The notes beneath the pieces were generated by a model. The model made no database searches. It was given only the letters and a program-made list of their open reading frames with translations, and was not told the origin of the DNA. 48,936 bases of DNA from Puniceicoccaceae bacterium. GTDB lineage: Bacteria; Verrucomicrobiota; Verrucomicrobiia; Opitutales; Opitutaceae. Positions within the stretch are counted from its first letter, which is position 1, and the number at the start of each line of letters is the position of its first letter. Positions 13,612-48,936 of this stretch are shown here, one piece after another. The position numbers were made by a program, and so were the translations under genes. Location: the NCBI GenBank assembly GCA_007695295.1, contig REEB01000111.1, positions 1-48,936 of the forward strand, given 5' to 3'.

Positions 13612-14349
13612 GTGCAGCCCATCCATCCTGACTCCTCCCTCACCAACGTGCTCGCCTTCGCTTTCCCCTTTCCGCGGGTTCACCGCGCAAACCCTGTCGG
13701 GGTGTGCGCGCGGCTCTGGATTCTTCATCTGGGTCTTCTCGGGCTGAGTTCGACCGCCCTGGCGGAGGGAGAGAATCTCCTTCTCAATGGGCAATTCACT
13801 CAAGGGCTGGACCACTGGGCCACGCATGGAGCGGTCTTGTCCATCAGTGATCAGGCCTTGCTCACCGATGCCGCAGCCACCCGGACCCTTCTCTTCCAAG
13901 GCGTTGAGGTGGGTGCGGGAGCCTTCACCTTCTCCTTCGACTTCCAGAACCTTTTATCTACGGCCGAGCCTTCCGGTCGGGCCAAGGATACGTTTTTTGC
14001 CTCTCTTTACTTCGCCCCCGAGGCGGCGGCTTTCGATCCGGTCGGGTTCACGGGTTTCGCCGGGTTTCTGGATCTGCTCGATCTGGATGCGGCCGGGCCG
14101 CGGGTGCTGCGGGGGGAAGTGGTCGCGAGTCCGGTGCTGGCTGGGTTCAGCCGGTATACGGTCGAGTTTGTTCTCCCCGAGGCCGCAACCGTCTTTGCGG
14201 TCTTCGACCTGGTGGACCTGAATGCTCTCCCGGATGACAGCCGGGTGCTGCTCGATTATGTGGTTCTCATTCCCGAGCCGGCCTTGGTCGGAGGATGGGT
14301 CGGGTTGATTGCTCTCGTTTGCCTCGGCTGGCGGCACATCAAATCATGA
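13612..14349 (+). CDS. PEP-CTERM sorting-domain protein (first gene of giant operon)
   Basis: The product has 245 residues from the GTG at 13612; a GTG at 13702 is an alternative start that would give a cleaner signal peptide ending TALAE. An in-frame stop directly before 13612 excludes a longer form. Residues 55-215 are a beta-rich domain opening NLLLNGQFTQGLDHWATHG, as in choice-of-anchor or carbohydrate-binding modules of exported proteins. The C-terminus is a textbook PEP-CTERM signal: PEP at 221-223, a hydrophobic stretch GGWVGLIALVCLGW and a short basic tail RHIKS. Such proteins are processed by an exosortase and delivered to the cell surface or extracellular matrix; no exosortase gene lies in this window. 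Its TGA overlaps the ATG of the next gene by 4 bp (ATGA), so translation is probably coupled. Confidence 0.85.
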   Translation: MQPIHPDSSLTNVLAFAFPFPRVHRANPVGVCARLWILHLGLLGLSSTALAEGENLLLNGQFTQGLDHWATHGAVLSISDQALLTDAAATRTLLFQGVEVGAGAFTFSFDFQNLLSTAEPSGRAKDTFFASLYFAPEAAAFDPVGFTGFAGFLDLLDLDAAGPRVLRGEVVASPVLAGFSRYTVEFVLPEAATVFAVFDLVDLNALPDDSRVLLDYVVLIPEPALVGGWVGLIALVCLGWRHIKS

Positions 14350-35900: not shown

Positions 35901-38900
35901 CCAACGGCTTCGAAGTCGACCGGGGCATGAATCCCTTTGTCGCCGACCTTGATGAGGACGACTTTGACGGCGACGGCCTTACCAACGGCGAGGAGCGCCT
36001 CCTCGGGACCGATCCGGGCAACCCCGACACCGATGGCGACGGCATCCCCGACGGCGCCGAAGTCTGGGGCAAATACTTCGCCGTCGGCTGGTGGCGCGGG
36101 GAGGATTCGACCGCCGATGTTTTCCGGAGTTTCCCCGGCATCATCGAAAACGGCGCCGTCGGTTTCGGTGAGGGCGCTCGCGGCCGGGCCTTTGCCTTCG
36201 ACGGCGGGGAGGGGCGCGTCCGCCTTTCCAACTCCGGCACGGGCGCGCTCCGCCTCACCGGCGAGGCCCTCACCATCGAGGCCTGGGTGAACCAGGACGA
36301 TCCCGCGCAGCCGGGCAACGCGGAAAACGCCCAGATTGTTTTCGACAAGTTCAACCCCACCCCCAGCCCCGTCGGCGGTTACCGCCTCGCGCTCGTCAAC
36401 GGGCGTCCCCGTATCCAGATTGTCACCACCGACCATCCCGGCGGCATCGCCGTGCTCGCGCCCGATCCCGTGCCTGCCGCCGAATGGGTCCACCTGGCCG
36501 CCGTTTACGACGGCGCGGCCCTGCGGCTTTATGTTGACGGTAGTGAAGTCGCCACGACACCGGCCACCGGCGCGCTCATTCCGAGCACCATCGACGCCGC
36601 CATCGGCAACGGCGCCGGGATTGCGACCGGTCCTGGCTTCGGCTTCAAGGGCCGCCTCGACGAAGTCGCCGTGCACCGCGCCGCCCTCCCCGCCGCCCAC
36701 ATCGCCGAGCTGGCTTCGCTCGAACTCGACGGGCGCGTCTTCGCCACCGATCCGCTTGATCCCGACACCGACGGCGACGGCTACCCCGACGGCATCGACC
36801 CCGACCCGCTCGATCCGAACGTGCCAGGCGTCCTCATTCCGCAGGGTCTCGTCGCCTGGTGGCGATTCGACGGCGACCTCACCGACGAAGCCCGCTTCTT
36901 TGACGCCGCCCGGTCCAACGCCGTCGCCTTTGTGCCCGCCCTGCACGACGAAGGGCTGCGCCTCGGCGCGGGCGGCTTTGTCGAAGTCGATGACGATCCC
37001 CGCCTGCGCCTGCAGCGCTTCACCATGGAAGCCTGGGTGCGGCCGGAGGGTCCGGGGACGAACGAGGATGGTTTCGGGAACCAGATCGTCGGAAAATTCC
37101 GCGATCAATCCTATGGCTACGCTATCTTCTGGCGGCAGGATGGTCGCTTCACCGCCCTTACCGGAGGGCTTTCAAATCTCATTGTATCCACAGACGTGTT
37201 TCCGACCGGCGCCGATTACCATGTCGCGTTCACCTACGATGGCACCGCCTTCCGCCTTTACGTCGATGGCGTCCTCCAAGGGCAGCGGTCCGACGCGACC
37301 GCCCGTCAATACAGCTCCCTTTCATGGGCCCTCGGGGCCAATCTCGCAGCCTTCCACGGGACGGGCTTTCCCCGGCGCTTCAACGGCGTTATCGACGATC
37401 TCGCCCTCTACGACCGTGCCCTCACGCCATTGGAGATACTCTCCATCGTTCTCTCCGGCGCCGAGGGCAAACCCGGCAGCGGCGACTCCGATGGCGACGG
37501 CATTCCCGACATCCTCGATCCGTTCCCCGACGAGCCCAACCGTCCGCCCGTCCACACCGACCGCTTTTTCGCCCTCGACGCCGGCGAAGCGCTCAACCGC
37601 ACCTGGGCCGTCATTCTCGGCGGTGCGACCGATCCCGACGGTGATTCCTTCGGGCTCGATTTCGCCAGCATCTCCGATCCGGCCAACGCCACCCTTGTCG
37701 TCGATGCCGAAGGCTTCCTCCTCACGCCCGATCCGGGCGTCACCGGAACCGTTGCTTTCACCTATGACCTCGTCGACCGTTGGGGGGCGCGCGCCACTTT
37801 TGCCGTCGAACTCCTCGTCGGCGACAACACGCGTCCCGTCGCCGGCAATCTTGCGGCTCCGCTGAAGCGCCACGCGCTCCGCTTCGACGGGGTCAACGAC
37901 TTCGTCGAAGCCGCCCTCACACCCGCCGTTGACGTGAGCACGATGCCTGGTTGGACCGTCGAGGCATGGGTCAAGCCGGAGTCCTTCAATAACGTCAGCT
38001 TCCCGGTCATTTTCGGGCAAGGCGATTGGCGCGCGACGCTCGGCCTCAGCAGCTCCACGGGTGTCCTCCAAAGCTGGTTCAATTTCAGCTCGGCGGTGAA
38101 CGCAACGGCCGGGCCGCCGCTCAACGAATGGTCCCATATCGCCCTCGTTTTCGACGGGACCCACCGGCGCTTCTACGTTGACGGGATTGAAGCCGGGGCG
38201 ACCGCTTCGGTTGCCCCCACGGGCGACGGCTTCCCCATCCGTATCGGCGCGGTCGGCGGAGCCACGCCCGACGGTCGAGGCCACTTCCGCGGCGTTATCG
38301 ACGAAGTGCGCCTCTGGCGGCGAGCCCTCACGGCCGCGGAGATCGAGGCCAACCGCAGGCTCATCGTTGGTGGCGACACGCCGGACCTCGCGGCCTATTG
38401 GGCCTTCGCCGAAGGTGTCGGCGCCACCACCGCCAATCTCGTGCCCGGCAGCCTTCGGGCCACCCTCGGCAGCTCCGAAGCGACCGCCCCGCAGTGGGTC
38501 CTATCCGACGCGCCCTTTGCGCCGGTCAAGCAGATCGAGATCGTCCGCACCGGCCAGAACCTTTTCATCCTCGAAGGGTTCGACGCCGACGGCCAGGCCC
38601 TCACCGCGCGCGTCCTCGTGCCGCCCGCGACCGGTCGGCTTTTCCAGTTCGCCTCCGGGGCGGCCGGTGACGAAATCATCGAACCCGATACGGTGGTAAC
38701 GGACTCCCGGCGGCGCGTGGTTTACGTGCCCGACCCCGCCGCCGGCAGCCTGGTTGAGCTGGTCTTTGTCGTCAACGACGGCCTCCTCGATTCCGAGCCG
38801 GCCGCCTTGCGCCTCATGCGCGAGCCGACTCCGTCGCCGACAAGCGATGACCTCTGGGATGTTTCGCAGGGCGCAACCGTCACCGCCCACAGCGGGGTGC

Positions 38901-41900
38901 GGGCCGATTCCTTCATCGAGAACCTCTTCGGCGGCACCGGCGGTATCGAACCCGCCAATACGATCTTCGCCGATGGCCGCCCGGCGGGTTTCACTCACTT
39001 CGTGGAATGGGAAACGGACGGCCCGGTCTGGCTCGAAGGCTTCAACCTTTTCGCCGCCGATGAACCAGGCGACGGCGCGCGCGGCATTACCGCTCTGCGG
39101 CTCTATGGACGGAACGCTTCGGACGAAGAGTTCACCCTCCTAGCCACGCAGACCGTGGCTGCCAACCCGTATTTCCCCGATCCCTTCCTCCGCTTCACCG
39201 GTCTGCTCCCCGCGCCCTTCATTGGCCGGCAGTTCCGCGCCGAATTCGACCAATTCGGTGCAAGCGCTTTCTCCGGGCCGCGTATCGAAGAATTGGATGC
39301 AATCGGAGAACCGATTGTGTTTATACCCCCTCCAACCGGGATCGTTCTGCAAAACGCCACCGCCGATGGCTCGCAAAGCGGCTGGCCGGTGGGCCACGCG
39401 ATCAACGGCATCAAGACGGGAAGTGGCGGCTGGGGCGGCTTTGTCGGTGGCGGCCAGCCCCCGCTGACAGCCGTTTTCGAGTCGCGCGACGACCTGTCGT
39501 CAAACACGAATACGCGCTTTACCTTCACCCTTCATCAGACCCATGGCTTCACCTCGCTTGGGCGCTTCCGCTTGTCTGCGACGACTGACGACCGTTCGAC
39601 TTATGCCAACGGTCTCGCCAATGGCGGCGATGTCACGGCCAATTGGACGGTCCTCGATGTTCTTGAGGTAACGGGCACCGGCGGTGAAACCTTCGAGGTG
39701 CTTGAAGACGGCTCCATCCTTGTCGGTGGTGCGATGCCCGTCACGACCATCCACAACGTGCGGAAGATTGGCATCAATGGCGTGGTGACCGGATTCCGCG
39801 TGGAACTTTTGAAGGACCCTTCGCTCCCGCTCGGCGGGCCGGGTCGGGCATCGAACGGCAACTGGGTTCTGACCGAGATCGAGGTGGAGTGGGAAGGCGG
39901 CTTGCCCACGCCCAACCGGCCGCCCCGGGGCGTCGATGACTTCCTCAGCGTTACGGAGGGCTTCGCTTCGAGCACCGGCAATGTCCTGGCGAATGACGTC
40001 GATCCGGAGGGCGACCCCATCGTGGTCGCGGCCTTCACCCAGCCAGCGCATGGAACGGTCGTTTATGAAGGCGACGGCATTTTCACCTACACGCCCGATC
40101 CTGGGTTTATTGGGGAGGACAGTTTCACCTACACCCCCGCGGACGGTTTTCAGAATGGTCGGGCGGCGACCGTCTTCGTCACGGTGATCCCGAGCGAAGT
40201 TGTCGCCTGGATCAATCCCGCCGGAGGCAACTTCACCGACCCGAACAATTGGCTGCCCGCGCGTGTGCCCGTCGGGTCGGATCGTGCGGTCATCGACCTT
40301 CCGGGCACCTACACGGTTACGCTCAGTGGCAACGCAACCCTCACGAGTCTGCACGTCGGTGCAGAGGACTCGTTCCCGCTCCTGCGCCAGACGGCGGGCG
40401 TTTTGACATTGGCGCAGCACTCCGTGCTCCACCGCTATGATTTCACCGGCGGCACCCTCACGGGAACGGGCAGCGTGACCGTTAACGAGAGCTTTACCTG
40501 GACCGGCGGCAACCTGCTCGGTTCCGGCCGTATCGTTCTTTCGGATACGTCCGTTTCAACCATCGGCGGCAGCGGCACGAAACGCCTCGGCCAGACCCGC
40601 ACCATCGAAAACCGCGGCAGCCTCGTCCAGAGCCACATCATGAATCTCGGCGATGGCGTCACGACGGGCGAGGTCGGGGTGGAGAATGCGGCCGGCGCGG
40701 AGTGGACCTTCGCGGGCACGGGCGGGTTCTCCCAGTTTTCGAATACGGGCACCCTGCGTTTCATCAACGAAGGAACCTTCCTCAAAACGGGTGCGGGGAC
40801 ATCAACGCTCATCGCCCCCGTTTCCTTGCACAGCTCCGGCAGCATCCGCGTGGAGGAAGGCACCTTGCACGTCTTCAGTTCTGCGGATATCGAAGGGGAA
40901 ATCTTCACCGGGGTGAACGCGGTTTTTGCCGCCACCGGCGGCCCGGTGCGCCTGCTCGACGGCTCCACTATTTCCGGCGAAGGTGTCTTCAGTGTCGGAC
41001 GATCCGGTTTCGGGGGAGGGGAGCTGATCGCCGAAACAGACCTGAGCGTGCCCAAATTCCATCTCGTGGCCGGTTCGTTCCGCACGGATGGAACCCTCAC
41101 GGTGACGGAGGTGCTCGACTGGGCCAGCAGCACACTTGTCGAGGGTTTGGGGCGCATCATCGTTGGCGAAGACGCTGCGGCCACCCTGGCCACCGGCATT
41201 CTTGGCGGCACGGTGGTCTTTGAGAATCGCGGGAGGGTGGATCAAATCGTCACAACGGGCGGTTTGCGTCTCGGATCCGACGGGGGCACAACGGCCCGTA
41301 TCGAAAACACCGCTACGGGTGAGTGGACACTCGTCGGACAGGCCAGATTCACCGTCTTCCGCAACGGCAGCTACACCTTCCTCAACGAAGGCACACTCGT
41401 GAAGACGGGCGTGGGGACGTCCAATTTCAACACCGCCCAACTCGCCCTCGAAAACCGCGGCACCCTGCGCATCGAAGGCGGCGCGCTCAATTGGCCCGGT
41501 CCCGCCACCTTGGGCGGATCGGTCGGGATCGCCGCCGGGGCGGAACTCGGCTTCAGCGGGACCACCATTTGGCGGGAGGATGTCGACTTCTCCGGTGAGG
41601 GTGTCCTCGCCGCCACCGGCGGCACGATGCGGATGGACCATCCCTTGACCATCCCGCAGCTCCGCATCAGCGGCGGCGTGGTCACCGGAGGCGGCACCCT
41701 GACCGTCGCGCAGTCCCTCCAGTGGACGGGCGGCCAAATGGGCGGCAGCGGGCGCACGATCCTTGCTCTCGGATCGACCACGGCGATCGGGCCCAGCTTT
41801 GTCCAACTCGCCAACACCCGCGTCCTTGAGAACCGGGGCTCGGTTGTCCAAAGCGGCAACCTGCAACTCGGCCATCCGAGCCTTGAGAACACGGTCGCCA

Positions 41901-43507
41901 TCGTAAACACCGGCGGCGCGAGCTGGGAATTGCAGGGGAGCGCCGCCTTCATCCACGGCACCGCCGGGCCGCATGCGTTCACCAACGCCGGCATTTTCAC
42001 CAAGACCGGAGCAGGCATCTCCACCCAGGCCAGCGTGTTGGACTTCACCAACACGGGGACGTCGCGCATTGCCGAGGGGGTCTTCATTCATCCCGGCGGG
42101 GGAAGTCACTCCGGCATTCTCGAGGTTTTGCCGGGCGCGACCTTCCGTATCTCCGGCGGCACCTTCGAGGCACTCCCCGACGGCGAAACCTCCGGCACGG
42201 GCACCCTCTCGGTCACCTCCGGCACGCTCATTCTCCGCCATCCCCTCGACCCGGCCATGACCGTCGAACTCGGCGGCGGCATGGCCTTGTTTGAGGTCGA
42301 CCAAACTCTCTCCACACTCACCCAAATTCAGGGCAACCTCGGCGGCGACGGCACCCTCACCATTACCGACACCTTCCTCTGGAGCAGCGCCGGCACCCAG
42401 ACCGGCAGCGGGCGCACCCTTCTCGCCGAAACCTGCCTCTCCAACCTTCCCAGCGGCACCTCCAAACGAGTCAGCGGTGAGCGCGTTTTTGAAAACCGGG
42501 GCATTCTCTTCCTCGGGAGCAGCTTCATCCTCCTGGACAACGCCCGCGCCGTGAACACCGCCACGGGCGAATGGGAAATCAACAGCTTCGGGCGCATCGA
42601 CCGCGGGGGCGCGGGCACGGCCCATTTCGACAACGAGGGACTCGTTTACCGCACCGGCGCGGGCACCTCCTTCATTCTCTCCACCATCGAATTCGTCAAC
42701 GCGGGCCGACTCGAAGCCCGCGAGGGCTTGCTCCACTTCGAGTCCGGCGCACTCTTCAGCCAGACCCCCACCGGCGTCCTTCGTCTCGCCGGGGGCACCG
42801 TGACCGCGACCACCAACCTCAACCTCGCCGCCGGGCGTTTCGAGGGCGCGGGCACCTTCACCGGCAACCTGACCCTGGGGGCCGCCATTCTCGCGCCCGA
42901 TCCCGCACCCGCCGCCGGGATCACCCTGACCGGCAACCTTACGCTCGCCGCCGCCGGCCGCCTCGAACTCGCCCTCGCCGGGCGCCACTCCGAGCACAAC
43001 CACCGCCGCCTCGCCGTCGGCAGCGCGGCCAACCTCCTCGGCGTCATCGCGGTCGACCTCCGCGCCGGTTTCGACGAACCCGCCGACGCCACCTTCGACA
43101 TCCTCACCGCCAACGGCATCACCTTCGACCCCGATACCATCGAAGGACTCACCGACAACCAAGGCTACAGCTTCGAACTCCTTCCCTTCGCCAACGCCCT
43201 CACCCTGCGGGTGCTGACCCAGGGATCGGTGGCCGGCGAAGCCGGGGCTGCATTGGTCGCAAGCGGCAGTCTGAGGCTCCATCTGCTGCCCGACGGCAGC
43301 TTGGAGCTGACTTATAGTGAGGGGTTTGGGGATGGCGTTGCCGGCATCCAGGGCCGGGCGCTTCCCGCCTTCGAGTACTCGCATGATTTGAAGACGTGGC
43401 ACCCGATTGACGCCCTGCTGCTGGAGGCCGGGGCGGGCCGGCTGCGGCTGCGGCCGCCTGATGATAGTCAGGCGATGTTTATCAGAACCAGGGAAGCGAC
43501 ACCGTAA
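26948..43507 (+). CDS. Giant exported adhesin-like protein with regulatory-like, Ig-like, LamG and beta-helix repeats (5,519 aa)
   Basis: The ATG at 26948 overlaps the previous stop (ATGA). A long signal peptide with a 25-residue polar start and core VVGLLLLLFSGVMG ends near residue 42. Approximate layout: 427-520 CARDB-like; 551-723 helix-rich segment; 945-2240 about 13 carboxypeptidase-regulatory-like repeats; 2241-2470 two SbsA-type Ig domains, then further Ig-like domains and a third SbsA-type at 2768-2888; 2976-3042 thrombospondin-3 calcium repeats (DTDGDGIPDG); LamG-type domains near 3042-3258, 3300-3505 and 3641-3820; 3965-4320 discoidin-like parts; 4324-4415 cadherin-like; 4418-5350 autotransporter-type beta-helix with four tandem units; 5355-5519 C-terminal module with YSHDLKTW. 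No outer-membrane beta-barrel is seen at the end. It probably acts as a calcium-stiffened surface fibre binding glycans or cells; no enzyme motif was recognised. Confidence 0.85.
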   Translation: MKPLKIARQFSPDGRHPDGSRIPAQVVGLLLLLFSGVMGTAQPLTTLDYRVVGQQLGVSPAAVAVPKGIAGSVLTTVAGDLPPGAFVEATLRGPSFPARRLVAAPNAPLLLPPLSLVGDYSLDGIRLIDPATGAVLLEGNPSTVPVRVFDEILISRVTSRPLSVEEIEQRGIYIDEQNFRAIEFEVGFVLDGITYPVSLPVVTPRYRQTTEIIPAAELEQRLVEVQRINNDLSASVVLPPELEVIFPQFQIKGLNLEEGSADSGRNLALSIPPIPALMVIPGNIGFLNQFFSVMIFTENGAPAGSGLSVRDITAELILPLGPDRVAGTFENPGDDPLRFARVGPDRIIEPIQRIVRPGPDGILGTADDIPRLNPGQTGQAEFLVEGLQEGLHVMELQLRAILDGLAAGPVEVSGRAAGSVLVRNPRFSMAFVHPRTVRAGEPYEATVTILNTGGTIANLVSVELNANNISGGILESETRVELGNIEPGETKTATFRIRSQRTGAISFSNLTTSDDSLVGRFRLRAGVDERGVALSPDTILLPDFVEFLPPRVLAAAQRVIGQALSSNTAGQLPSGVRRVSKSFLEARREVDEDENVTYSAHGAMLMRLLEAAQRVRYGDPLERVLPDLALDWQGGREFDTGWDQIMRTTNAGREWREAILLSLEEADALERDASTRLAARGPDLAGRGENWLYAASDRDSIQPSMTRDNLSVDRFTSAIEKSFVYSGTRGSWLVAATDGVVIWRVEEALTGSAEVSVRCVRADGTGRGLVWTVSDLPAGACLRFDATGGSESLAIHATCDAAPIQTLAAIASDFTELPPEILFAYQDPEILVARPPVHISCYNPLTENDLGELVVVENYANILAILFSKPMTQETVNVPSAYRLNTGSEGAFVQMQPGGRLALLSFKHPFSMLNDPVLTVSGSVADVRGNTVSSPPIPVTTRLFEGVTVRGRVIRADGSFAVNVPVTLTYDDKAGLTECFPWIRRMAQVRTDETGAFAFDFVLGDIPYSISATETTDLSEEAIRLILEASLQGQVDPRRLADLAELPGNRNILLSELVADTVGNAVAKAEGLDRAVVNDQAFANRYGSESVYALRFRGRGTVVGQVVLADGDTSVPGAAANLFPDPNSRELGRGILTDGSGRFAFYGVPLGPFSLQVLTPEGLTRTVSGILSENGEVANLRIELGATPVQFADWQGRLTEADGTPVAGAPVYVVESGTIILGQTMTNEGGFWTIRRVPTTLPGSAIGFSVDGRRTGLRGPIAAAPGATVTANIVLQTRAVVEGVVQFANGDPVPGATVGGGDRLVVTDEFGRFTLPGVPTGSGRVISTGYAGDETHPDPRRQGTRVASDRFTIQDGSNFVTLRFGTEGRIFGFVRDANNQPVPFVNVAIPFPAGDGSGVFLWVTADANGRYEFTGLALTGPVGGGYTLSAPSPPTTPLIDTSAIREIGESGTLAEVQAALGAAASVLASRSVRELEGGGPPFNPGEWGFIKGVQLRFDGDAQPADIKYLDRSVISGRVENSQGVPIGARVRLTGIAPDGIGDPVFGIRAERNSDPALGTFEFNGNAFVGDWGLQAASPFFPVVISTSGRTTPFDPDVSDVVLRFPPVQEINGSLTGQVFLPNGQPAGADIEVAIAANQDDPRIVRTDEEGRFSTGATLFSLRGNTTYTVTAFDPETGGRVRGSVYVQASQDNFVGLTLLGRGNIDVFVRRADGTPVAGADVSVKGGQYPNEAASGVTGADGRVVINNLFEGPYGVSAAATIGLSRVAGMAGVTVTRGVTAGTTVTLAATANLTGTFVEADGVTPVPFANVRLGSIAFAPTGADGRFSFTDVPLGTHLLTAVNPVTGRGGNTPVALTIVNETRNVTITETSLGVVRGLVLNTTGTGTVPNARVELTVDDNFALTKSFTVTSGPDGSYSIAGVPAGGFSMTVAGTLPNGNYSGEGGNATGFLPPGVAELPFDIALAGRADARIQVFESDGVTPATNARVLLLYTSPQDTDLDGQALLTNLPLLPNIAIAVSLNPGQSRNRSGFLPLNVSERGGLVEATLVLRGTGSLAGRVLEADGVTPAAGAEVTLRVARAGSANPTSANTNDPASNFSESAVVGADGVFSFDNLPPGLPVELTARRLGLAASETVATVVAGGTVERNLLLTATGTITGRVFNEDGTTHAEGASVSVEFAAPSGVEGVILRFADAEGRFSLSPVPQGAWLLRLVNLDTGGFNFFPGAVAKNGEIIDLGDIILDETPPFVVSTVPENSDDTVDVDAPIEVLFSEELDAATVNPTGVFVRRVGGGGAVVPATVELLAPDEDDVPRLVRITPTEPLESETTYQIVAVEGDLVNAVGLVTNRGPRDLVGRILAGTFTATFKTRDQRPPVLLSFTPADGAEQVDPRAVIRLSFDEPIRPDATITVTGPAGPIPGTVTLGVNALVLTFVPTLDLPVNASITATVGNVADLAGNFAEDQPFTTTFATLDTIGPAIAQLRIKDDAPPVADGAVTLEVVLAAPDPGARVRFSANFAVIGTTAPDVLEIPYTFPADGTITLRAIAIDRFGNEGEVAELTVGVQPNLPPVLTFTRLNPLTGPVPSGALFAVRVEAEDDGGVADLRAAAVGAASVPLRVSTGDPLFVQGSVFPTAVPGTFVRILASATDNSGVSTGEQSFDLEVSDGTPPVVAVAAPAANAIVFPGPFTLEVDWRDNSGAADLEVVLSGLATGTATLTATGTPNQNARATFAFDLAEMIPLGGSFTATVNATDAAGNTASTSRAFTVPDLIPPQIVAVTPEPDSTNNSLWELWELDYGETTSPSMRAVENYRLEDDNEEEVAFDLSVAGSISQLIRITPSTPLSPGRTYALVVSPAITDAAGNALLGFDGEPLPAEGMRLEFTTAAFLALTPAPGDPIVSGQTIRAVLLFESGTGADHWEFAFNDGPFTNATAIGGGRELSLSLPVDAEEAVFRIKGIRGFVFADYFHPPIVLNVRPRDADDDGDGWSNGFEVDRGMNPFVADLDEDDFDGDGLTNGEERLLGTDPGNPDTDGDGIPDGAEVWGKYFAVGWWRGEDSTADVFRSFPGIIENGAVGFGEGARGRAFAFDGGEGRVRLSNSGTGALRLTGEALTIEAWVNQDDPAQPGNAENAQIVFDKFNPTPSPVGGYRLALVNGRPRIQIVTTDHPGGIAVLAPDPVPAAEWVHLAAVYDGAALRLYVDGSEVATTPATGALIPSTIDAAIGNGAGIATGPGFGFKGRLDEVAVHRAALPAAHIAELASLELDGRVFATDPLDPDTDGDGYPDGIDPDPLDPNVPGVLIPQGLVAWWRFDGDLTDEARFFDAARSNAVAFVPALHDEGLRLGAGGFVEVDDDPRLRLQRFTMEAWVRPEGPGTNEDGFGNQIVGKFRDQSYGYAIFWRQDGRFTALTGGLSNLIVSTDVFPTGADYHVAFTYDGTAFRLYVDGVLQGQRSDATARQYSSLSWALGANLAAFHGTGFPRRFNGVIDDLALYDRALTPLEILSIVLSGAEGKPGSGDSDGDGIPDILDPFPDEPNRPPVHTDRFFALDAGEALNRTWAVILGGATDPDGDSFGLDFASISDPANATLVVDAEGFLLTPDPGVTGTVAFTYDLVDRWGARATFAVELLVGDNTRPVAGNLAAPLKRHALRFDGVNDFVEAALTPAVDVSTMPGWTVEAWVKPESFNNVSFPVIFGQGDWRATLGLSSSTGVLQSWFNFSSAVNATAGPPLNEWSHIALVFDGTHRRFYVDGIEAGATASVAPTGDGFPIRIGAVGGATPDGRGHFRGVIDEVRLWRRALTAAEIEANRRLIVGGDTPDLAAYWAFAEGVGATTANLVPGSLRATLGSSEATAPQWVLSDAPFAPVKQIEIVRTGQNLFILEGFDADGQALTARVLVPPATGRLFQFASGAAGDEIIEPDTVVTDSRRRVVYVPDPAAGSLVELVFVVNDGLLDSEPAALRLMREPTPSPTSDDLWDVSQGATVTAHSGVRADSFIENLFGGTGGIEPANTIFADGRPAGFTHFVEWETDGPVWLEGFNLFAADEPGDGARGITALRLYGRNASDEEFTLLATQTVAANPYFPDPFLRFTGLLPAPFIGRQFRAEFDQFGASAFSGPRIEELDAIGEPIVFIPPPTGIVLQNATADGSQSGWPVGHAINGIKTGSGGWGGFVGGGQPPLTAVFESRDDLSSNTNTRFTFTLHQTHGFTSLGRFRLSATTDDRSTYANGLANGGDVTANWTVLDVLEVTGTGGETFEVLEDGSILVGGAMPVTTIHNVRKIGINGVVTGFRVELLKDPSLPLGGPGRASNGNWVLTEIEVEWEGGLPTPNRPPRGVDDFLSVTEGFASSTGNVLANDVDPEGDPIVVAAFTQPAHGTVVYEGDGIFTYTPDPGFIGEDSFTYTPADGFQNGRAATVFVTVIPSEVVAWINPAGGNFTDPNNWLPARVPVGSDRAVIDLPGTYTVTLSGNATLTSLHVGAEDSFPLLRQTAGVLTLAQHSVLHRYDFTGGTLTGTGSVTVNESFTWTGGNLLGSGRIVLSDTSVSTIGGSGTKRLGQTRTIENRGSLVQSHIMNLGDGVTTGEVGVENAAGAEWTFAGTGGFSQFSNTGTLRFINEGTFLKTGAGTSTLIAPVSLHSSGSIRVEEGTLHVFSSADIEGEIFTGVNAVFAATGGPVRLLDGSTISGEGVFSVGRSGFGGGELIAETDLSVPKFHLVAGSFRTDGTLTVTEVLDWASSTLVEGLGRIIVGEDAAATLATGILGGTVVFENRGRVDQIVTTGGLRLGSDGGTTARIENTATGEWTLVGQARFTVFRNGSYTFLNEGTLVKTGVGTSNFNTAQLALENRGTLRIEGGALNWPGPATLGGSVGIAAGAELGFSGTTIWREDVDFSGEGVLAATGGTMRMDHPLTIPQLRISGGVVTGGGTLTVAQSLQWTGGQMGGSGRTILALGSTTAIGPSFVQLANTRVLENRGSVVQSGNLQLGHPSLENTVAIVNTGGASWELQGSAAFIHGTAGPHAFTNAGIFTKTGAGISTQASVLDFTNTGTSRIAEGVFIHPGGGSHSGILEVLPGATFRISGGTFEALPDGETSGTGTLSVTSGTLILRHPLDPAMTVELGGGMALFEVDQTLSTLTQIQGNLGGDGTLTITDTFLWSSAGTQTGSGRTLLAETCLSNLPSGTSKRVSGERVFENRGILFLGSSFILLDNARAVNTATGEWEINSFGRIDRGGAGTAHFDNEGLVYRTGAGTSFILSTIEFVNAGRLEAREGLLHFESGALFSQTPTGVLRLAGGTVTATTNLNLAAGRFEGAGTFTGNLTLGAAILAPDPAPAAGITLTGNLTLAAAGRLELALAGRHSEHNHRRLAVGSAANLLGVIAVDLRAGFDEPADATFDILTANGITFDPDTIEGLTDNQGYSFELLPFANALTLRVLTQGSVAGEAGAALVASGSLRLHLLPDGSLELTYSEGFGDGVAGIQGRALPAFEYSHDLKTWHPIDALLLEAGAGRLRLRPPDDSQAMFIRTREATP
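40441..42840 (+). repeat. Four tandem ~200-residue beta-helix units inside the adhesin gene
   Basis: Each unit opens with a pattern like GGTLTGTGSVTVNESFTWTG (starts near 40441, 41060, 41663 and 42320), continues with ENRG, and then has F-x-N-x-G plus a KTGAGTS-type motif. That motif lies at residues 4613, 4819, 5019 and 5235, giving spacings of 206, 200 and 216. The units have diverged at DNA level. A partial fifth unit follows (FEGAGTFTGNLTLG). The pattern is that of passenger-associated transport repeats in autotransporter-type beta-helices. Confidence 0.75.
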
Positions 43508-43583: not shown

Positions 43584-45104
43584 TCAGTAGGCGATGTTGG
43601 CCAAGGGATTGGTCGCGGTGTCGGCTGCTCCGACTGAGGTGATGACTGGAGCGATCGTTGCCGCGACCGTGGGGAAGTGATGAGTATTGGCCCGGGAGAT
43701 ATTGCGAATGAAGTGATTGATTCCGCCATCGACAGTGAACCCTCGGTAGGAGTTGGACACATGGCAGCCTTCGATCCGGTTGCCCTGACTCACAGCGCGA
43801 ATTCCGGCCCCGCTGGTGTTGTTTCCTTCGTTTGCCGCCAAGTGCACATGGCAGTCTCGTGCGGTCGAGGAACCATCAAGATAAATGCCATGCTGGCGGA
43901 CCGATCGGACTGACGTGCGCTCAACCACGCCGCCGCGGACTAAGACTCCGTCACCGTGGCCTGCCGTTGATGGCCCACTGGAATTCACGTCGATGACGGA
44001 GCTGTCGGCGACGTGGCGGGCGAGGATTCCGATGGCCCGACCACCATGGCCCATGACTTCATGAACAAAGCACCTTTGGACACGCCCGTTGGCGGTCAGG
44101 CGATTGTTCCATGGGTCCGGGCCGATGGCGATCCCATAGGCTTCATGTCCCATGACTTGGAGGACCTGGCAGGAGTCGGCGGAACCGGACAGGGTTGATC
44201 CGGTTCCTCCGATTTGAATGCCAATGGCACGCCCGGAACTGATAACCGCCGCAACCCACCGCACGTTGCAATGGACGACGTGAAGGGCGGCGATGCCAAC
44301 GCTGAGTGCTTTCGCGGTAGTGATCATATTAACATCACAGTCGCGGACGGATCCCGTATACAAAACCTCAATGCCGGCGATGCGCAAGTTATCCGAGCCT
44401 CCGGTGCCATCGACGGACGCGACGACGCAGTTCTCGACGCTTCCGGAGGCCAGGCGGATGCCGCTGATCGGTTGCGGGGTAGGGGCGGGCCGAAGCTGGG
44501 CGACGCGGCAGCCGCGGACCAGGGCGAAATCCCCCACGACAATTCCTGAGCCGGCGATATGGGACACATCACAGTCCACGATGCGGGAATTATAGCCTAC
44601 GACGGAGATCCCTGCGTTCCTGCAGTGGCGAACATCGATGCCGGTGACGCTGACATTGCGGCAATACGCAAGGTGCAGACCATGGCCATCCCAATGGGCA
44701 ATCTTTCCATTGTTAACATGGATGCCCGCGAACTGCGGAGGTTCGTCTTCGCCCACCAAGACCCACACCCGGTGAATACCATTCAGCGACCCGGGAACAC
44801 CACGCACCGTGAAGCCCATGAGGTCAATGGTGACATCGCCGGTAGTGATGGAGATTCCGTGTTTGCCCGCCTCGCCCTGGATGTCTCCGGAAAGGTAATA
44901 ATTGCCGGGTTCGCTGATTACGTGGACGGCATCTTCCGCCCCCGGCAGGGTGTTCACTGGAATGCGCGCCTCGATCTGCTGAAGCGTGCGCATGGTGGGT
45001 CCGGGTTCACCCGGAGGCGGGGTCAGGCTGCCCTGGGCGAGGGTGGCTGCGGGCAGGCAGACCGCGACCAGGAGAGCGTGGAAAAACGGATGGTGCGATT
45101 TCAT
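43584..45104 (-). CDS. Secreted right-handed parallel beta-helix protein with cysteine ladder
   Basis: The product has 506 residues from the ATG at 45104; in-frame upstream ATGs exist (for example about 45122), but this one gives a clean signal peptide (1-23, ending TLAQ). The rest is a pectate-lyase-like or NosD-like right-handed helix of short turns rich in Gly, Val, Ile and Asn. Nine C-x-V motifs recur at roughly even steps (CDV, CRV, CVV, CDV, CNV, CQV, CFV, CHV, CHV), suggesting Cys stacked on one face. The C-terminus ends NPLANIAY, an aromatic ending seen in related beta-helix proteins from this lineage (recalled, not checked). Folds of this kind bind or cleave polysaccharides, but no catalytic set was recognised. 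It is convergent with the adhesin gene, 76 bp apart. The leader is C-rich (CCCACCAACC before ATG) without Shine-Dalgarno. Confidence 0.85.
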   Translation of the reverse strand: MKSHHPFFHALLVAVCLPAATLAQGSLTPPPGEPGPTMRTLQQIEARIPVNTLPGAEDAVHVISEPGNYYLSGDIQGEAGKHGISITTGDVTIDLMGFTVRGVPGSLNGIHRVWVLVGEDEPPQFAGIHVNNGKIAHWDGHGLHLAYCRNVSVTGIDVRHCRNAGISVVGYNSRIVDCDVSHIAGSGIVVGDFALVRGCRVAQLRPAPTPQPISGIRLASGSVENCVVASVDGTGGSDNLRIAGIEVLYTGSVRDCDVNMITTAKALSVGIAALHVVHCNVRWVAAVISSGRAIGIQIGGTGSTLSGSADSCQVLQVMGHEAYGIAIGPDPWNNRLTANGRVQRCFVHEVMGHGGRAIGILARHVADSSVIDVNSSGPSTAGHGDGVLVRGGVVERTSVRSVRQHGIYLDGSSTARDCHVHLAANEGNNTSGAGIRAVSQGNRIEGCHVSNSYRGFTVDGGINHFIRNISRANTHHFPTVAATIAPVITSVGAADTATNPLANIAY

Positions 45105-45396
45105 GGTTGGTGGGAGGTGCATGGCTCTATTTTGCCAAAACCCTCGTAGGCTCACAATCCGACTTTGGTGGGAAACCTTCGGGTCGCGTGCCTCCGACCA
45201 TGGTTGGATGTTCCAGTGGAAAGCAGCAGGTTGCCCTCTGCCTCAAACCTCCGTCTCACTCCCTGGCGAAACAGATCCTCCTTCGCGCCCCGGAATGCAC
45301 TCCGAAGACAAACGCAGCGGCGGTGGGGGCTCATGTTTCCAGCAATGCGATCACATGGCGGTCCAAGGTCCGGAGGTTTGCGGACCCCGCCCTTGA
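45105..45396. other. Intergenic region upstream of the beta-helix gene
   Basis: This 292-bp gap holds the end of the ExbBD-type operon and the promoter of the beta-helix gene. Apart from the possible promoter at 45129-45157 and the near-palindrome TTTTGGCAAAA inside it, nothing is recognised. Confidence 0.5.
45129..45157 (-). promoter_or_regulatory. Possible sigma-70-type promoter of the beta-helix gene
   Basis: On the minus strand, TTGTGA (45157-45152; 4 of 6 matches to the -35 consensus) is followed after exactly 17 nt by CAAAAT (45134-45129; 4 of 6 to the -10). Transcription would start about 20 nt before the ATG at 45104. It overlaps the palindrome TTTTGGCAAAA, a possible repressor site. 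Confidence 0.35.
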
Positions 45397-46800
45397 TCAA
45401 CGCGTGACCGGTCCGGAGTGTGTATCTGAAAGCAGGATACCGAAAGAAAAGGCGACCTCACGCCAGCCGTTTTCGACCCGGTAGAGGATGCGGTTGATGC
45501 CGCGTTCGAAGCGGACTTTGCGGAAGCCTTCAAAGGGCTGCCAGCCCTTGAGATGTTCGTCGCTGATCCAGATGGGCAGGCCGTTGAGCCAGACGTCGCC
45601 CTTGTCGTCACTGCCGAGGGCAACCCAGAGTTCGCGGGCTTCATCGAACCAGACTTCGGTGTAGGCGTAGTAAATGGCGTATTCCTCGTCGTCATACGGA
45701 ATCACCCGTGGCTCCTGGCTTTGGAGGAATCGCCAGCGGACCGGGCGGCCGTTTTTGCCGGTGTAAACCGCATCGAGGTCGACGACGGTTTCGGGCGGAA
45801 AGCGGCGGTTGAGGTTGGCGCGTCCTGGGTTGGGAAACGGTCCGATGGTATGCCAGCTTTCGAGAAAGAGCCAAGTGGCGCCGTCGGCAGCGGGGATCAC
45901 GCGGCGGCCGAGGCGGTAGTCCGAAGGTTCGAGTCGGCGGGTTTCGCGCAATTGGAGCAACTGCCGCACCAGGTCCTCCTCGGCGGTGTCGATGGCGGTG
46001 GCGGCGAGTTCGCCGGGGCTTTCTTCGGCCTCCACATCGCCTTCGGCTCCGGCTCCGGCCGGGTCCTCATCGCCCTCGGGGCCTTCGGGAGGTGGGGGTG
46101 CTTCGTCGTCGTCGGCCAGTTGACTTTCGGCGAGGGCGCGCATGGCGGCGGTGAGGTCGCGCACGGGATCGGCCCCGTCCTCTTGGGCGAGTTGTTCGAG
46201 GGCGGCGAGGGCATCCGGGGGTACCAGGGGCAGGCCGGCTTCGGGATCGATTTCAGCCTCGGGATCAAAGTCTCGACGGGCCAGGATCTGCTCGAGCGTC
46301 AGCTCGATCTCGAAGTGCGGACCGAGCAGCTCGATTTCGGCTTCCACCTGTTCGATTTCATCGAGCAGCCGGGCCGTCAACGCGATCATGTTTTCAACCT
46401 CCGCCTCGACGCGCCGGATTTCCCGGCGCAGCGGGGGCACCTCCTCGGGATGGTAAACGGGCCGGCGGAGGCGCTGGCGGTCGATCCCGGGGAGGATCGG
46501 CATGACGGAGGCGATGTTGCGGTAGGCTTCGAGAAAAGGGAGATCGGACTGCCGCATGAGTTGGAGCGCGCGGATCTGGCGGTAGTCTTCGCAGACTTGG
46601 GCGAGCTGGGCGACGGCCTCGTCGTAGAGGTCGACGATGTCGAGCCCGTCGAGCGGAAGGACCTCGACCTCGACGCCGGGGCGGTCGTCCTCGAAGACGA
46701 CCGTTCCGGCCGGGAGGGTGGCGTCATCGACCGCCAGCGTGACCTCGGATCCGAGCAGCCCGAGGCAGAGTGCTGCGAAAAGACGGCGGGCCGGTTTCAT
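45397..46800 (-). CDS. Secreted coiled-coil protein with C-terminal galactose-binding-like domain, ExbBD operon
   Basis: The product has 467 residues from the ATG at 46800, with GGAGG 7 nt upstream. Residues 1-23 form a signal peptide (ending TLA). Residues 45-200 are helical, with a coiled coil around 125-165 (REIRRVEAEVENMIALTARL). Residues 215-270 are an acidic, Pro-rich linker. Residues 300-460 form a beta-rich domain: WHTIGPFPNPGRANLNRRFP, then WVALGSDDKGDVWLNG and a final GINRILYRVENGW. This pattern is recalled from sugar-binding-like modules of Verrucomicrobiota and Planctomycetota surface proteins. It overlaps the upstream coiled-coil gene by 4 bp (ATGA) and is the last gene of the exbB-exbD operon. 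Its place suggests a periplasmic or outer-membrane partner of the motor. No enzymatic motif was recognised. Confidence 0.8.
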   Translation of the reverse strand: MKPARRLFAALCLGLLGSEVTLAVDDATLPAGTVVFEDDRPGVEVEVLPLDGLDIVDLYDEAVAQLAQVCEDYRQIRALQLMRQSDLPFLEAYRNIASVMPILPGIDRQRLRRPVYHPEEVPPLRREIRRVEAEVENMIALTARLLDEIEQVEAEIELLGPHFEIELTLEQILARRDFDPEAEIDPEAGLPLVPPDALAALEQLAQEDGADPVRDLTAAMRALAESQLADDDEAPPPPEGPEGDEDPAGAGAEGDVEAEESPGELAATAIDTAEEDLVRQLLQLRETRRLEPSDYRLGRRVIPAADGATWLFLESWHTIGPFPNPGRANLNRRFPPETVVDLDAVYTGKNGRPVRWRFLQSQEPRVIPYDDEEYAIYYAYTEVWFDEARELWVALGSDDKGDVWLNGLPIWISDEHLKGWQPFEGFRKVRFERGINRILYRVENGWREVAFSFGILLSDTHSGPVTR

Positions 46801-47855
46801 GGCCGGACCTCCGGGCCGGGGTGGGGCGCGATGTCGAGCCTGGCGAGCACGCCGGCCTGGGTGCGGTGGGCGCGGGTTTGCGCGGCGAGCGCCTCGCTGA
46901 CGCGCCGGGCGATGTCCTGCCGGGCCGATTCGATTTCCGCCTCGCGGCGGGCGAGATCCTCGTGGGTGCGGGCGAGTTCGTTGCCGCGGTTGCGGAGGTC
47001 GCGCTGGGCGGATTCCAATTGGCGGCGGTGCTGGTCGAGCTGCTGGCGGGCTTCGCGCTCCCGGTGGTCGGGGTTATCGATCGCGGCTCCATCGGCGATG
47101 CGGCGCCGGAGCTTTTCGAGGGCCTCTTCACTGGCGGCGAAAGTGGCGGCGGCTTCCGCGGCGGCGGCTTCGTGTGCGGAGACGGTGGCTGCCTGCCGGG
47201 CGGCGCGTTCGCGCAGGGTGGCGCTTTCGTTGCGGAGCCGCTCGATGCGGGCGAAGCCCTCCATGGCAAGGCGGAGGGCGTTGCCGGCGGCAAACTGGTG
47301 CTCCTCCGCTTCATCCTGGAGCGCGAGCAGGGATTCCTCGCCGTCGCGGAGGAGGAAAATGCCGCGGCGGACCTCGTCCTGGGCGCGGAGGATGCGGGCG
47401 ATGCGGCGACGGGCTTCATCGACGAGCGGTTCGCCGCGCAGGGTTTCGGGATAGACCCGGAGGGCCGCCGTGACAGCTTCCTGCGAAAGGAGCAGATCCT
47501 CGGCATAGACGGAGAGGCGAAGGGCGGCGTTGCGCGACTGGGCTTCCTGAAAAGGCTGCAGGTGGTTGTTGATGATGCGGTAGTTGGCGGCCATGCGTTC
47601 CCGGCCGCCGGCGAGCAACTGCACGCGCTCGCGCAGCCGGTCGGCGGCGTTTTCCCGGATGACCGCGACCACCTCCTCCAGCTCTTCGCCGCGGCGGATG
47701 ATCTGGGGCTCGGTGTCGGGCTTGCGGTCGAGCACGAACTCCCGCACGGGTGCGAAAAAGAGCAGCCCGAGGAGGAGCCCGTGCAGGATCAGCGAGCCGA
47801 TCCAGAACCGGCTGCTAGGGCCAGTTGGGTTCGCGCCGGGTGTTGATGCCGACAT
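46797..47855 (-). CDS. Inner-membrane-anchored periplasmic coiled-coil protein, in tonB position
   Basis: The product has 352 residues from the ATG at 47855, which lies inside the end of exbD (41-bp overlap) and has GAGGG 8 nt upstream. A single transmembrane helix at about 17-36 (WIGSLILHGLLLGLLFFAPV) puts the rest in the periplasm. Residues 50-340 are almost entirely helical and charged, with heptad-like stretches (ALEKLRRRIADG, then REREARQQLDQHRRQLESAQ). There is no Pro-rich spacer and no TonB C-terminal beta domain, although gene position after exbB and exbD is where tonB or tolA normally lies. It is probably the force-transmitting partner of this ExbB/ExbD pair. It shares an ATGA overlap with the next gene. 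No known family was recognised. Confidence 0.8.
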   Translation of the reverse strand: MSASTPGANPTGPSSRFWIGSLILHGLLLGLLFFAPVREFVLDRKPDTEPQIIRRGEELEEVVAVIRENAADRLRERVQLLAGGRERMAANYRIINNHLQPFQEAQSRNAALRLSVYAEDLLLSQEAVTAALRVYPETLRGEPLVDEARRRIARILRAQDEVRRGIFLLRDGEESLLALQDEAEEHQFAAGNALRLAMEGFARIERLRNESATLRERAARQAATVSAHEAAAAEAAATFAASEEALEKLRRRIADGAAIDNPDHREREARQQLDQHRRQLESAQRDLRNRGNELARTHEDLARREAEIESARQDIARRVSEALAAQTRAHRTQAGVLARLDIAPHPGPEVRP

Positions 47856-48234
47856 TGTTGAAGCCCTCGAAGCGGAGGGTGTCCATCACTTCCATGGCGG
47901 ACCGGAAGTGGGCGTTTTGGTCGATGTCGAGGCGGATTTTGGTTTCGGGGTTGGCCTGGCCGAGCTCGCGCAGGTTGCTGCGGAGGAGGGTGAGGGAGAT
48001 GGGGGCGCCATCGAGGTAGAGGGCGCCGGTTTCGTCGACGGCGATGACGTGAAACTCCTCGGGTTGCTGGACGTCGATGGCGGCGGCGGCCTCGGGGAGT
48101 TCGAGGGGAAGCTCGCGGTCGATCTGTTTAAGCGTGGTGGCGACGAGGAAAAAGATCAGGAGGAGGAAAACGCAGTCGATGAGCGGAGCCATCTGCACCT
48201 CGAAGGATTCTTCATCGCGAAGCGTGATGCGCAT
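47815..48234 (-). CDS. exbD: ExbD/TolR-family biopolymer transport protein
   Basis: The product has 139 residues, matching the family size. A short cytoplasmic start is followed by one membrane helix, APLIDCVFLLLIFFLVATTL (16-35), carrying Asp20, the conserved proton-path residue. The periplasmic part includes LPLELPEAAAA (about 45-55) and the usual IRLDIDQNAHFRSAMEVMD pattern (about 104-122). ExbD works with ExbB as a proton-driven motor in the inner membrane. It starts 6 bp after the exbB stop and overlaps the next gene by 41 bp, so the set is a tight operon. No Shine-Dalgarno is seen at the start. Confidence 0.95.
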   Translation of the reverse strand: MRITLRDEESFEVQMAPLIDCVFLLLIFFLVATTLKQIDRELPLELPEAAAAIDVQQPEEFHVIAVDETGALYLDGAPISLTLLRSNLRELGQANPETKIRLDIDQNAHFRSAMEVMDTLRFEGFNNVGINTRREPNWP

Positions 48235-48240
48235 GGCGGC

Positions 48241-48936
48241 TCAGGCTTGGGTGGATTCGGCCTGGGAGAGAAACCAGAGCGAGATGATGCGCTCGATCTC
48301 GGTCTCCAGCTCCATGGCGTACTGGCTGGCGCGGGCGCGGAAGAAGTGGTAGGCCCCGAGCATGGGGATGGCCAGGCCGAGGCCGACGGCGGTGGTGACG
48401 AGGGCTTTGGAAATGCCGCCGGCCAAGAGGGAGGCATCGCCGAGGCTGCCGACGATGGCGACGACCTCGAAAGAGTCGATCATGCCGATGACGGTGCCGA
48501 GCAGGCCGAGGAGCGGGGCGAGGGTGGCGATGATGGCGATGGGGTAGCAGCGCTGGAGTTCGAGGCGCATTTCGCGGCTGGCGAGATCGGAGGCGAGCGC
48601 GGACAACTCGAGCGTGGAGCAGGTGCGGTGGCGGACGAGCGCATCGATGACCCGGGCAAACGTGCTGGGTTGGCTGGCGCAGACTTGGCGGATGCCATTG
48701 TAGTCCTCCGCTTTCCAGCGATTGGCGACCTCGGCCGCGAGATCGGGGGGAAGAAACCGTTTCCTCCGCAGGGTGGCGAAGCGCTCGAGGATAAAGCTGA
48801 GACCGGCGATCGATAGGACGCCGAGAAACACCATCGTGAGCCCGCCCTGGCGGAGCCGGTCGATGATGCCGGCGATTGGCACCGTCTCGGGCTCCGGGTC
48901 GGGGGCGATTTCATCCGCGGCGGGAGGCGGAAGCGT
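48241..48936 (-). CDS. exbB: ExbB/TolQ/MotA-family proton channel protein (5' end outside window)
   Basis: Three membrane helices are present, numbered from a possible GTG start at 48882: about 14-34, 114-134 and 157-180. The hallmarks are LLGLLGTVIGMIDSF and GISKALVTTAVGLGLAIP, the pore-lining parts of ExbB/TolQ. The frame stays open to the right edge with TLPPPAADEIAPDPEPET before the GTG. That looks like the Pro/Glu-rich linker seen after a signal peptide in ExbB proteins of this type, so the true start probably lies outside the window. ExbB pentamers surround an ExbD dimer and use the proton gradient to drive a periplasmic rod. It is the first gene visible in the operon. Confidence 0.92.
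   Translation of the reverse strand, partial: TLPPPAADEIAPDPEPETVPIAGIIDRLRQGGLTMVFLGVLSIAGLSFILERFATLRRKRFLPPDLAAEVANRWKAEDYNGIRQVCASQPSTFARVIDALVRHRTCSTLELSALASDLASREMRLELQRCYPIAIIATLAPLLGLLGTVIGMIDSFEVVAIVGSLGDASLLAGGISKALVTTAVGLGLAIPMLGAYHFFRARASQYAMELETEIERIISLWFLSQAESTQA

What the first reader, a model, noticed from the sequence alone, without database searches (positions are those of the whole stretch)
45397..48936. ExbB/ExbD operon with a coiled-coil rod and secreted partner instead of TonB
After exbB and exbD come a one-helix membrane protein with about 290 periplasmic coiled-coil residues and an exported coiled-coil/sugar-binding-like protein, linked by overlaps of 41 and 4 bp. No TonB or TolA features are present. 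Known ExbB/ExbD relatives with non-TonB outputs include gliding, type 9 secretion and Zorya motors. This may be another type of envelope motor, possibly serving export of the large surface proteins nearby.
Basis: partly seen in the sequence, partly recalled or inferred. Interest (0 to 1): 0.6.

Follow-up and report, generated by a model that had tools for sequence, protein, structure and literature searches.

The report
TonB-like envelope motor with sugar-binding-fold tip
This is a proton-driven inner-membrane motor operon whose rod-shaped partner docks on the motor the way TonB and TolA do but ends in a different, sugar-binding-like domain; the same operon recurs in dozens of species of the Planctomycetes-Verrucomicrobia group and I found no description of it.

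Summary
The four genes are real (exbB, cut at its 5' end by the contig edge; exbD; coiled-coil p2; secreted p4; overlaps 41 and 4 bp). The claim 'no TonB or TolA features' is wrong: the p2 membrane helix carries the Ser-x3-His core of the TonB/TolA motor-docking (SHLS) motif, and S21 and H25 are the only invariant residues in 39 homologues of p2. The set is conserved: a scan of 84,980 genomes with the p4 tip domain alone gave 78 strong loci, and all 73 not cut inside the transducer gene have exbB and/or exbD beside it. In most relatives p2 and p4 are one protein, so p4 is the distal half of the transducer. The tip is a GH2-type jelly roll in place of the TonB C-terminal domain; no TonB_C domain lies near any of these loci. 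Best reading: a new class of proton-driven TonB/TolA-like force transducer in PVC bacteria, parallel to the recently described vWA class; its envelope target is unknown. In a two-ExbD subclass, 21 of 25 readable transducers lack the docking Ser/His, and 16 of those 21 also lack the facing ExbB Ser. Linkage to the giant surface proteins nearby is not supported. Novelty: new variant of a known kind.

The parts
48241..48936 (-). exbB (MotA/TolQ/ExbB proton channel subunit), 231 aa readable, 5' end lost at contig end; S42 in TM1 (48811-48813) corresponds to the conserved TM1 Ser of ExbB/TolQ
   Evidence: Pfam PF01618 6.2e-24; profile hits to TolQ/ExbB structures; S42 invariant in family alignment A6
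47815..48234 (-). exbD, 139 aa, with the pore Asp (PLIDC)
   Evidence: Pfam PF02472 1.2e-28; sequence
46797..47855 (-). p2: inner-membrane part of the force transducer, 352 aa; overlaps exbD by 41 bp
   Evidence: ORF; homologues at the same place in relatives; AF2 model pLDDT 88
47754..47813 (-). p2 TM helix, residues 15-34
   Evidence: AF2 helix 15-34
47781..47795 (-). S21-x3-H25, core of the SHLS motor-docking motif
   Evidence: present in 47 of 47 class A sequences and the only invariant columns of A4; motif definition PMC12905483
47688..47708 (-). p2 residues 50-56 PQIIRRG: possible 'motor box' strand between TM helix and bundle (inference, soft)
   Evidence: similar short hydrophobic strand-like stretch in many relatives; motor box concept PMC12204202
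46839..47687 (-). p2 residues 57-339: antiparallel helical (coiled-coil) bundle, helices up to 81 residues, about 12 nm
   Evidence: AF2 model
45397..46800 (-). p4: exported distal part of the transducer, 467 aa; 4-bp overlap with p2
   Evidence: ORF; fused to p2 in most relatives
46732..46800 (-). p4 Sec-type signal peptide (about residues 1-23; read by eye, no predictor run)
   Evidence: sequence MKPARRLFAALCLGLLGSEVTLA; the second gene also starts with a signal-peptide-like stretch in L100
46327..46638 (-). p4 helical hairpin, residues 55-158 (conserved module that aligns within the fused proteins)
   Evidence: AF2 model, alignment A5
46141..46158 (-). conserved short linear motif D215-L-T-A-A-M220 in the linker
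   Evidence: D215 nearly invariant in A5; motif-like match in 67 of 79 family proteins
45427..45918 (-). p4 tip domain: GH2-type jelly roll, residues 295-458
   Evidence: AF2 + VIA-align Z 9.5, rmsd 2.9 over 131 residues to GH2 N-terminal domain of CsxA; family alignment A3

Best explanation
The operon encodes a TonB/TolA-like, proton-motive-force-driven force transducer. Shown by sequence: ExbB and ExbD make a standard ExbBD-type motor. The p2 TM helix carries the Ser-x3-His core of the SHLS motif with which TonB and TolA dock on the rim of ExbB/TolQ, and ExbB keeps the facing TM1 Ser. p2 continues as a helical bundle of about 12 nm. p4 is the distal half of the same transducer: most relatives carry p2 and p4 as one protein. 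It has a helical hairpin, a linker with a DLTxxM motif and a GH2-type jelly roll at the tip. Inferred: ExbB5-ExbD2 proton flow moves or pulls p2; p4, exported separately, binds p2 non-covalently; the jelly roll replaces the TonB/TolA C-terminal domain and grips an envelope target (outer-membrane protein, lipoprotein or glycan/peptidoglycan). Confidence per step: TonB-like docking and energisation about 0.8; p4 as bound distal half about 0.85; tip grips an outer-envelope target about 0.6; identity of target unknown.
For: Gene set: 78 strong tip-domain loci, one genome per species; all 73 not cut inside the transducer gene have exbB and/or exbD beside it, although the search used the tip domain alone. 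SxxxH in 47 of 47 class A transducers, and S21/H25 are the only invariant columns in 39 homologues of p2. ExbB TM1 Ser (S42) present in all 45 readable loci with SxxxH and aligned to the Ser of solved ExbB TM1 (weak segment); SHLS-TM1 Ser contact from PMC12905483. p2+p4 fused in 53 of 72 loci, split in 19, about 5 changes on the tree, typically with a 4-bp overlap when split; end-to-end alignment with the fused L036 protein, 3e-16 and 3e-59. Jelly-roll fold. No TonB_C within reach in any related locus, while the same profile finds three ordinary TonB operons of the genome. Pore Thr in ExbB and pore Asp in ExbD kept.
Against: No experiment and no complex model (only single-protein AF2 was available). 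The p2-p4 contact rests on gene fusion and order. The last Ser of SHLS is Thr or Pro in most members (window: Pro36), and the TM1 Trp of ExbB is not conserved. The two-exbD subclass mostly lost SxxxH yet keeps the same architecture, so docking by SHLS is not essential to the design. No conserved outer-membrane partner gene is linked. Upstream of exbB is unreadable in the window.
Confidence: 0.75

Rival explanations
1. A TolA-equivalent: the transducer energises outer-membrane tethering or constriction like Tol-Pal, with the jelly roll binding a Pal- or TolB-like partner or peptidoglycan.
For: Long helical domain II and SHLS helix resemble TolA (PMC12204202); window ExbB is closest to TolQ among NCBIfam models and among solved structures.
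Against: No tolB, pal or other conserved partner gene recurs beside the operon. Distribution is patchy (17 of 372 genomes of the order with a reported match), unlike a core division system. Tip fold is unrelated to the TolA C-terminal domain.
Confidence: 0.2
2. A specialised uptake or glycan-handling Ton-like system: the jelly roll recognises a carbohydrate or a glycan-importing outer-membrane complex, and motor action powers transport.
For: Jelly roll has the GH2 N-terminal / PA14 / CBM35-like fold; hosts include many polysaccharide degraders (general knowledge); several loci per genome.
Against: No TonB-dependent receptor plug domain in the related loci; the GH2 N-terminal jelly roll is a common structural module that need not bind sugar; the same module occurs in unrelated proteins.
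Confidence: 0.25
3. The motor drives surface-protein export, gliding or a type-9-like pathway, possibly for the giant proteins at 14295-43507.
For: Giant PKD/LamG/Big/cadherin proteins lie in the same contig.
Against: They lie on the opposite strand and no such gene recurs near the operon elsewhere.
Confidence: 0.05
4. Ordinary TonB operon with an unusual TonB encoded elsewhere; p2 and p4 are accessory factors like TtpC/TtpB.
For: The genome has ordinary TonB_C proteins (17 domains) and plug-domain receptors (16).
Against: p2 itself carries the SHLS helix that a TonB would supply, and no TonB_C lies near any of the related loci; three of the genome's other exbB loci carry a TonB_C gene of their own.
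Confidence: 0.08

Closest known systems
TonB-ExbB-ExbD and TolA-TolQ-TolR
   Same: ExbB/ExbD motor with pore Thr and Asp; single N-terminal TM helix with Ser-x3-His-x6-Leu; ExbB TM1 Ser; periplasm-spanning segment; globular distal domain.
   Different: Distal domain is a GH2-type jelly roll, not the TonB/TolA C-terminal domain; spanning part is a folded antiparallel helical bundle; the transducer can be two separately exported polypeptides; no linked receptor, TolB or Pal found.
[quoted passage not shown]
   Same: Non-TonB distal domain on an SHLS TM helix beside motor genes in PVC bacteria, some with a pair of ExbD/TolR-like genes.
   Different: vWA fold with a roughly 100-residue disordered linker and a TPR partner gene, against a coiled-coil bundle plus jelly roll and no recurrent TPR partner; the jelly-roll class is not described in the sections read.
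TtpC/DUF3450 TonB2-type systems
   Same: Extra periplasmic helical protein near exbB/exbD.
   Different: Those keep a true TonB; here the helical protein itself bears the SHLS helix.
Zorya ZorAB, GldLM, AglRQS
   Same: Same 5:2 motor superfamily.
   Different: No Zorya partner proteins found; ExbD is ordinary and separate from the rod; gliding/T9SS families not tested beyond Pfam/NCBIfam scans.

Membership tests
ExbB/ExbD-type (generic) motor | MotA_ExbB and ExbD domains with pore Thr and Asp | tested here: met
   Pfam hits over cut-off; PLIDC in ExbD; T148 and T181/T182 conserved in the ExbB family
TonB | SHLS motor-docking TM helix | tested here: met
   S21, H25, L32 present; fourth position is Pro in the window and Thr/Pro in most members rather than Ser; S and H invariant
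TonB | TonB_C C-terminal domain (PF03544) | tested here: not met
   No hit in p2/p4 and none in related loci; jelly roll instead
TonB | Acts on TonB-dependent receptors | not testable with these tools
   No plug-domain gene linked; function needs experiment
TolA / Tol-Pal | Linked tolB and pal | tested here: inconclusive
   No broadly recurrent neighbour besides exbB, exbD and the transducer; indirect test by neighbour clustering, TolB/Pal models were not searched
TolA / Tol-Pal | TolA C-terminal domain | tested here: not met
   No Pfam/NCBIfam match; the distal domain is a jelly roll
vWA force transducers (PMC12204202) | vWA distal domain | tested here: not met
   No vWA hit; jelly roll fold
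Zorya | ZorA with long tail plus ZorB/C/D | tested here: not met
   Only a 2.6e-4 ZorA match over the channel core; no ZorB/C/D
GldLM / type 9 secretion motor | GldM-type periplasmic domains | tested here: inconclusive
   No Pfam/NCBIfam match; not searched specifically
GH2 N-terminal / PA14-like jelly roll (fold level only) | Jelly-roll fold | tested here: met
   Z 9.5, rmsd 2.9, 131 aligned; PA14 weak match in 5 of 15 members

The most novel reading that the evidence does not exclude
This is a new class of PMF-driven force transducer of the PVC group with two coupling modes. One-ExbD systems dock like TonB through Ser-His against an ExbB TM1 Ser. Two-ExbD systems have mostly abandoned that interface (SxxxH absent in 21 of 25 readable transducers, and the ExbB Ser absent in 16 of those 21) and must couple the same rod and tip to a motor with two different ExbDs in another way. 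That would make the family a natural experiment on how TonB-type motors transmit force.
Probability: 0.5. Interest if true: 0.75.

Novelty: new variant of a known kind. Interest (0 to 1): 0.6.

Why it matters
How TonB and TolA turn proton flow into force is still unsettled (PMC12905483). A natural family that keeps the docking interface, swaps rod and tip, tolerates splitting of the transducer into two proteins, and has a sister subclass that mostly lacks the docking residues gives direct tests of which parts matter. It also adds an energised trans-envelope system to PVC bacteria, whose cell envelopes are poorly understood.

Tried and rejected
Pfam, NCBIfam and PADLOC gave no informative family for p2/p4; coiled-coil matches (SMC, JetC, tropomyosin) are compositional. 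The p2 query alone found no homologue in 80 family genomes because coiled coils diverge; the joined p2+p4 alignment did. Weak jelly-roll hits and L089-L092, L171, L172 are unrelated proteins that share the module and were set aside. A Fisher test of SxxxH against ExbB Ser looks extreme but the rows are related: on the tree there are only 1-3 independent contrasts, so it is not statistical proof. For eight class A loci the N-terminus was located by searching for a hydrophobic SxxxH just downstream of exbD, so those eight are not independent evidence for the motif. The DLTxxM motif scan used a loose pattern and some proteins have extra chance matches. The homology of ExbB S42 to the TM1 Ser of solved ExbB rests on a colinear but individually insignificant alignment segment and on position. 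The literature search covered only open PMC papers; no description of this class was found, which does not prove there is none.
Full report
OBSERVATION. The window is a complete contig (C237) of a 4.6 Mb, 278-contig genome of an Opitutaceae-type bacterium; that placement is an inference, because two loci from genomes searched as the same family or order are the same contigs as records named Opitutaceae, Rariglobus and Opitutus. exbB is truncated by the contig end. ExbB and ExbD pass Pfam cut-offs; p2 and p4 have no family.

THE TONB SIGNATURE. The p2 TM helix reads RFWIGSLILHGLLLGLLFFAP. Ser-x3-His-x6-Leu is the first three quarters of the SHLS motif with which TonB and TolA bind ExbB/TolQ (PMC12905483). 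Across 39 diverse homologues of p2, S21 and H25 are the only invariant columns, and all 47 readable class A transducers have both (eight N-termini were located with the help of the motif). So p2 is a TonB/TolA-like transducer by its membrane part, contrary to the finding.

SPLIT AND FUSED FORMS. In G049 (same family, another genus) exbB-exbD are followed by one 851-aa protein that aligns end to end with p2 then p4. Over 72 loci 53 are fused and 19 split, with about 5 changes on the ExbB tree (a few splits may be assembly errors). Where split, the genes typically overlap by 4 bp, and the second gene of L100 again begins with a signal-peptide-like stretch. p4 is therefore the distal half of the transducer and most likely binds p2 in the periplasm.

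BREADTH. A scan of 84,980 species genomes with the tip-domain alignment A3 gave 80 loci, 78 strong. All 73 of the 78 that are not cut inside the transducer gene have exbB and/or exbD adjacent (L141, where exbB lies about 3 kb downstream). Hosts are Verrucomicrobiota, Kiritimatiellota, Lentisphaerota and Planctomycetota, and one KSB1 bin. Within the order 17 of 372 genomes have a reported match, a patchy distribution. No other gene recurs broadly beside the operon. No TonB_C or plug domain occurs in the related loci, while the same TonB_C profile detects three ordinary TonB operons of the window's genome, which has many TonB_C and plug domains elsewhere.

STRUCTURE. AF2 gives p2 (pLDDT 88) a TM helix 15-34 and helices up to 81 residues, consistent with a bundle of about 12 nm (the bundle packing is inferred from helix lengths and breaks, coordinates were not inspected). 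p4 (pLDDT 80) has a helical hairpin 55-158, a flexible linker and a jelly roll 295-456. The jelly roll is closest to GH2 N-terminal domains (Z 9.5, rmsd 2.9, 131 residues), a fold often called sugar-binding-like; binding is not shown. In the linker a short motif DLTxxM is conserved in both subclasses; its role is unknown, possibly a partner-binding strand or helix.

TWO SUBCLASSES. Class A (window): one exbD, SxxxH present. Class B: two exbDs, both with the pore Asp; SxxxH is absent in 21 of 25 readable transducers. ExbB TM1 Ser is present in all 45 readable loci with SxxxH, including the four class B exceptions, and absent in 16 of the 21 without it. The five that keep it are L161 and four near-identical rumen loci. 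On the tree this amounts to 1-3 independent events, so it is suggestive of a lost interface, not statistical proof.

MECHANISM. Most likely ExbB5-ExbD2 is driven by proton flow, p2 docks on its rim, the bundle carries motion to p4, and the jelly-roll tip engages an envelope target. Docking is inferred from motif and conserved partner residue; force transfer and target are inferred from the TonB/TolA analogy.

KNOWN KIND. By features it works like TonB/TolA but is not a member of either family, since the defining C-terminal domain was tested and is absent. The nearest precedent is the vWA class of PMF-driven transducers in PVC bacteria (PMC12204202). The jelly-roll class is not described in the sections I read or in the searches made.

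Noticed in passing
window 14295-26951 and 26948-43507, + strand: Two adjacent giant ORFs of 4218 and 5519 aa overlapping by 4 bp, with PKD, Big, alpha/beta-hydrolase (first) and LamG, carboxypeptidase-regulatory-like, Big and cadherin domains (second).
   Followed up: partly
window 43584-45155, - strand: 523-aa right-handed beta-helix protein directly downstream of the operon on the same strand; not conserved beside the operon elsewhere.
   Followed up: partly
window 46141-46158 and homologues: Short DLTxxM motif in an otherwise variable linker is conserved in both subclasses across phyla; function unknown.
   Followed up: partly
L166-L170 (rumen Lentisphaeria): Variant gene order exbD - transducer - exbB - exbD.
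   Followed up: no
L135 / L076: Two-ExbD set with the second exbD downstream of the transducer, on a long branch near the one-exbD clade.
   Followed up: no
L073:7544-8833 (= L094): The p4 homologue is interrupted by a stop codon between two open pieces; assembly error or broken gene.
   Followed up: no
G000 contigs C191, C255, C93: Several proteins with two or more TonB_C domains in tandem in the window's genome.
   Followed up: no
L113/L139, L101/L140, L102/L142, L104/L143: Four rumen-type genomes each carry two divergent copies of the one-exbD system.
   Followed up: no
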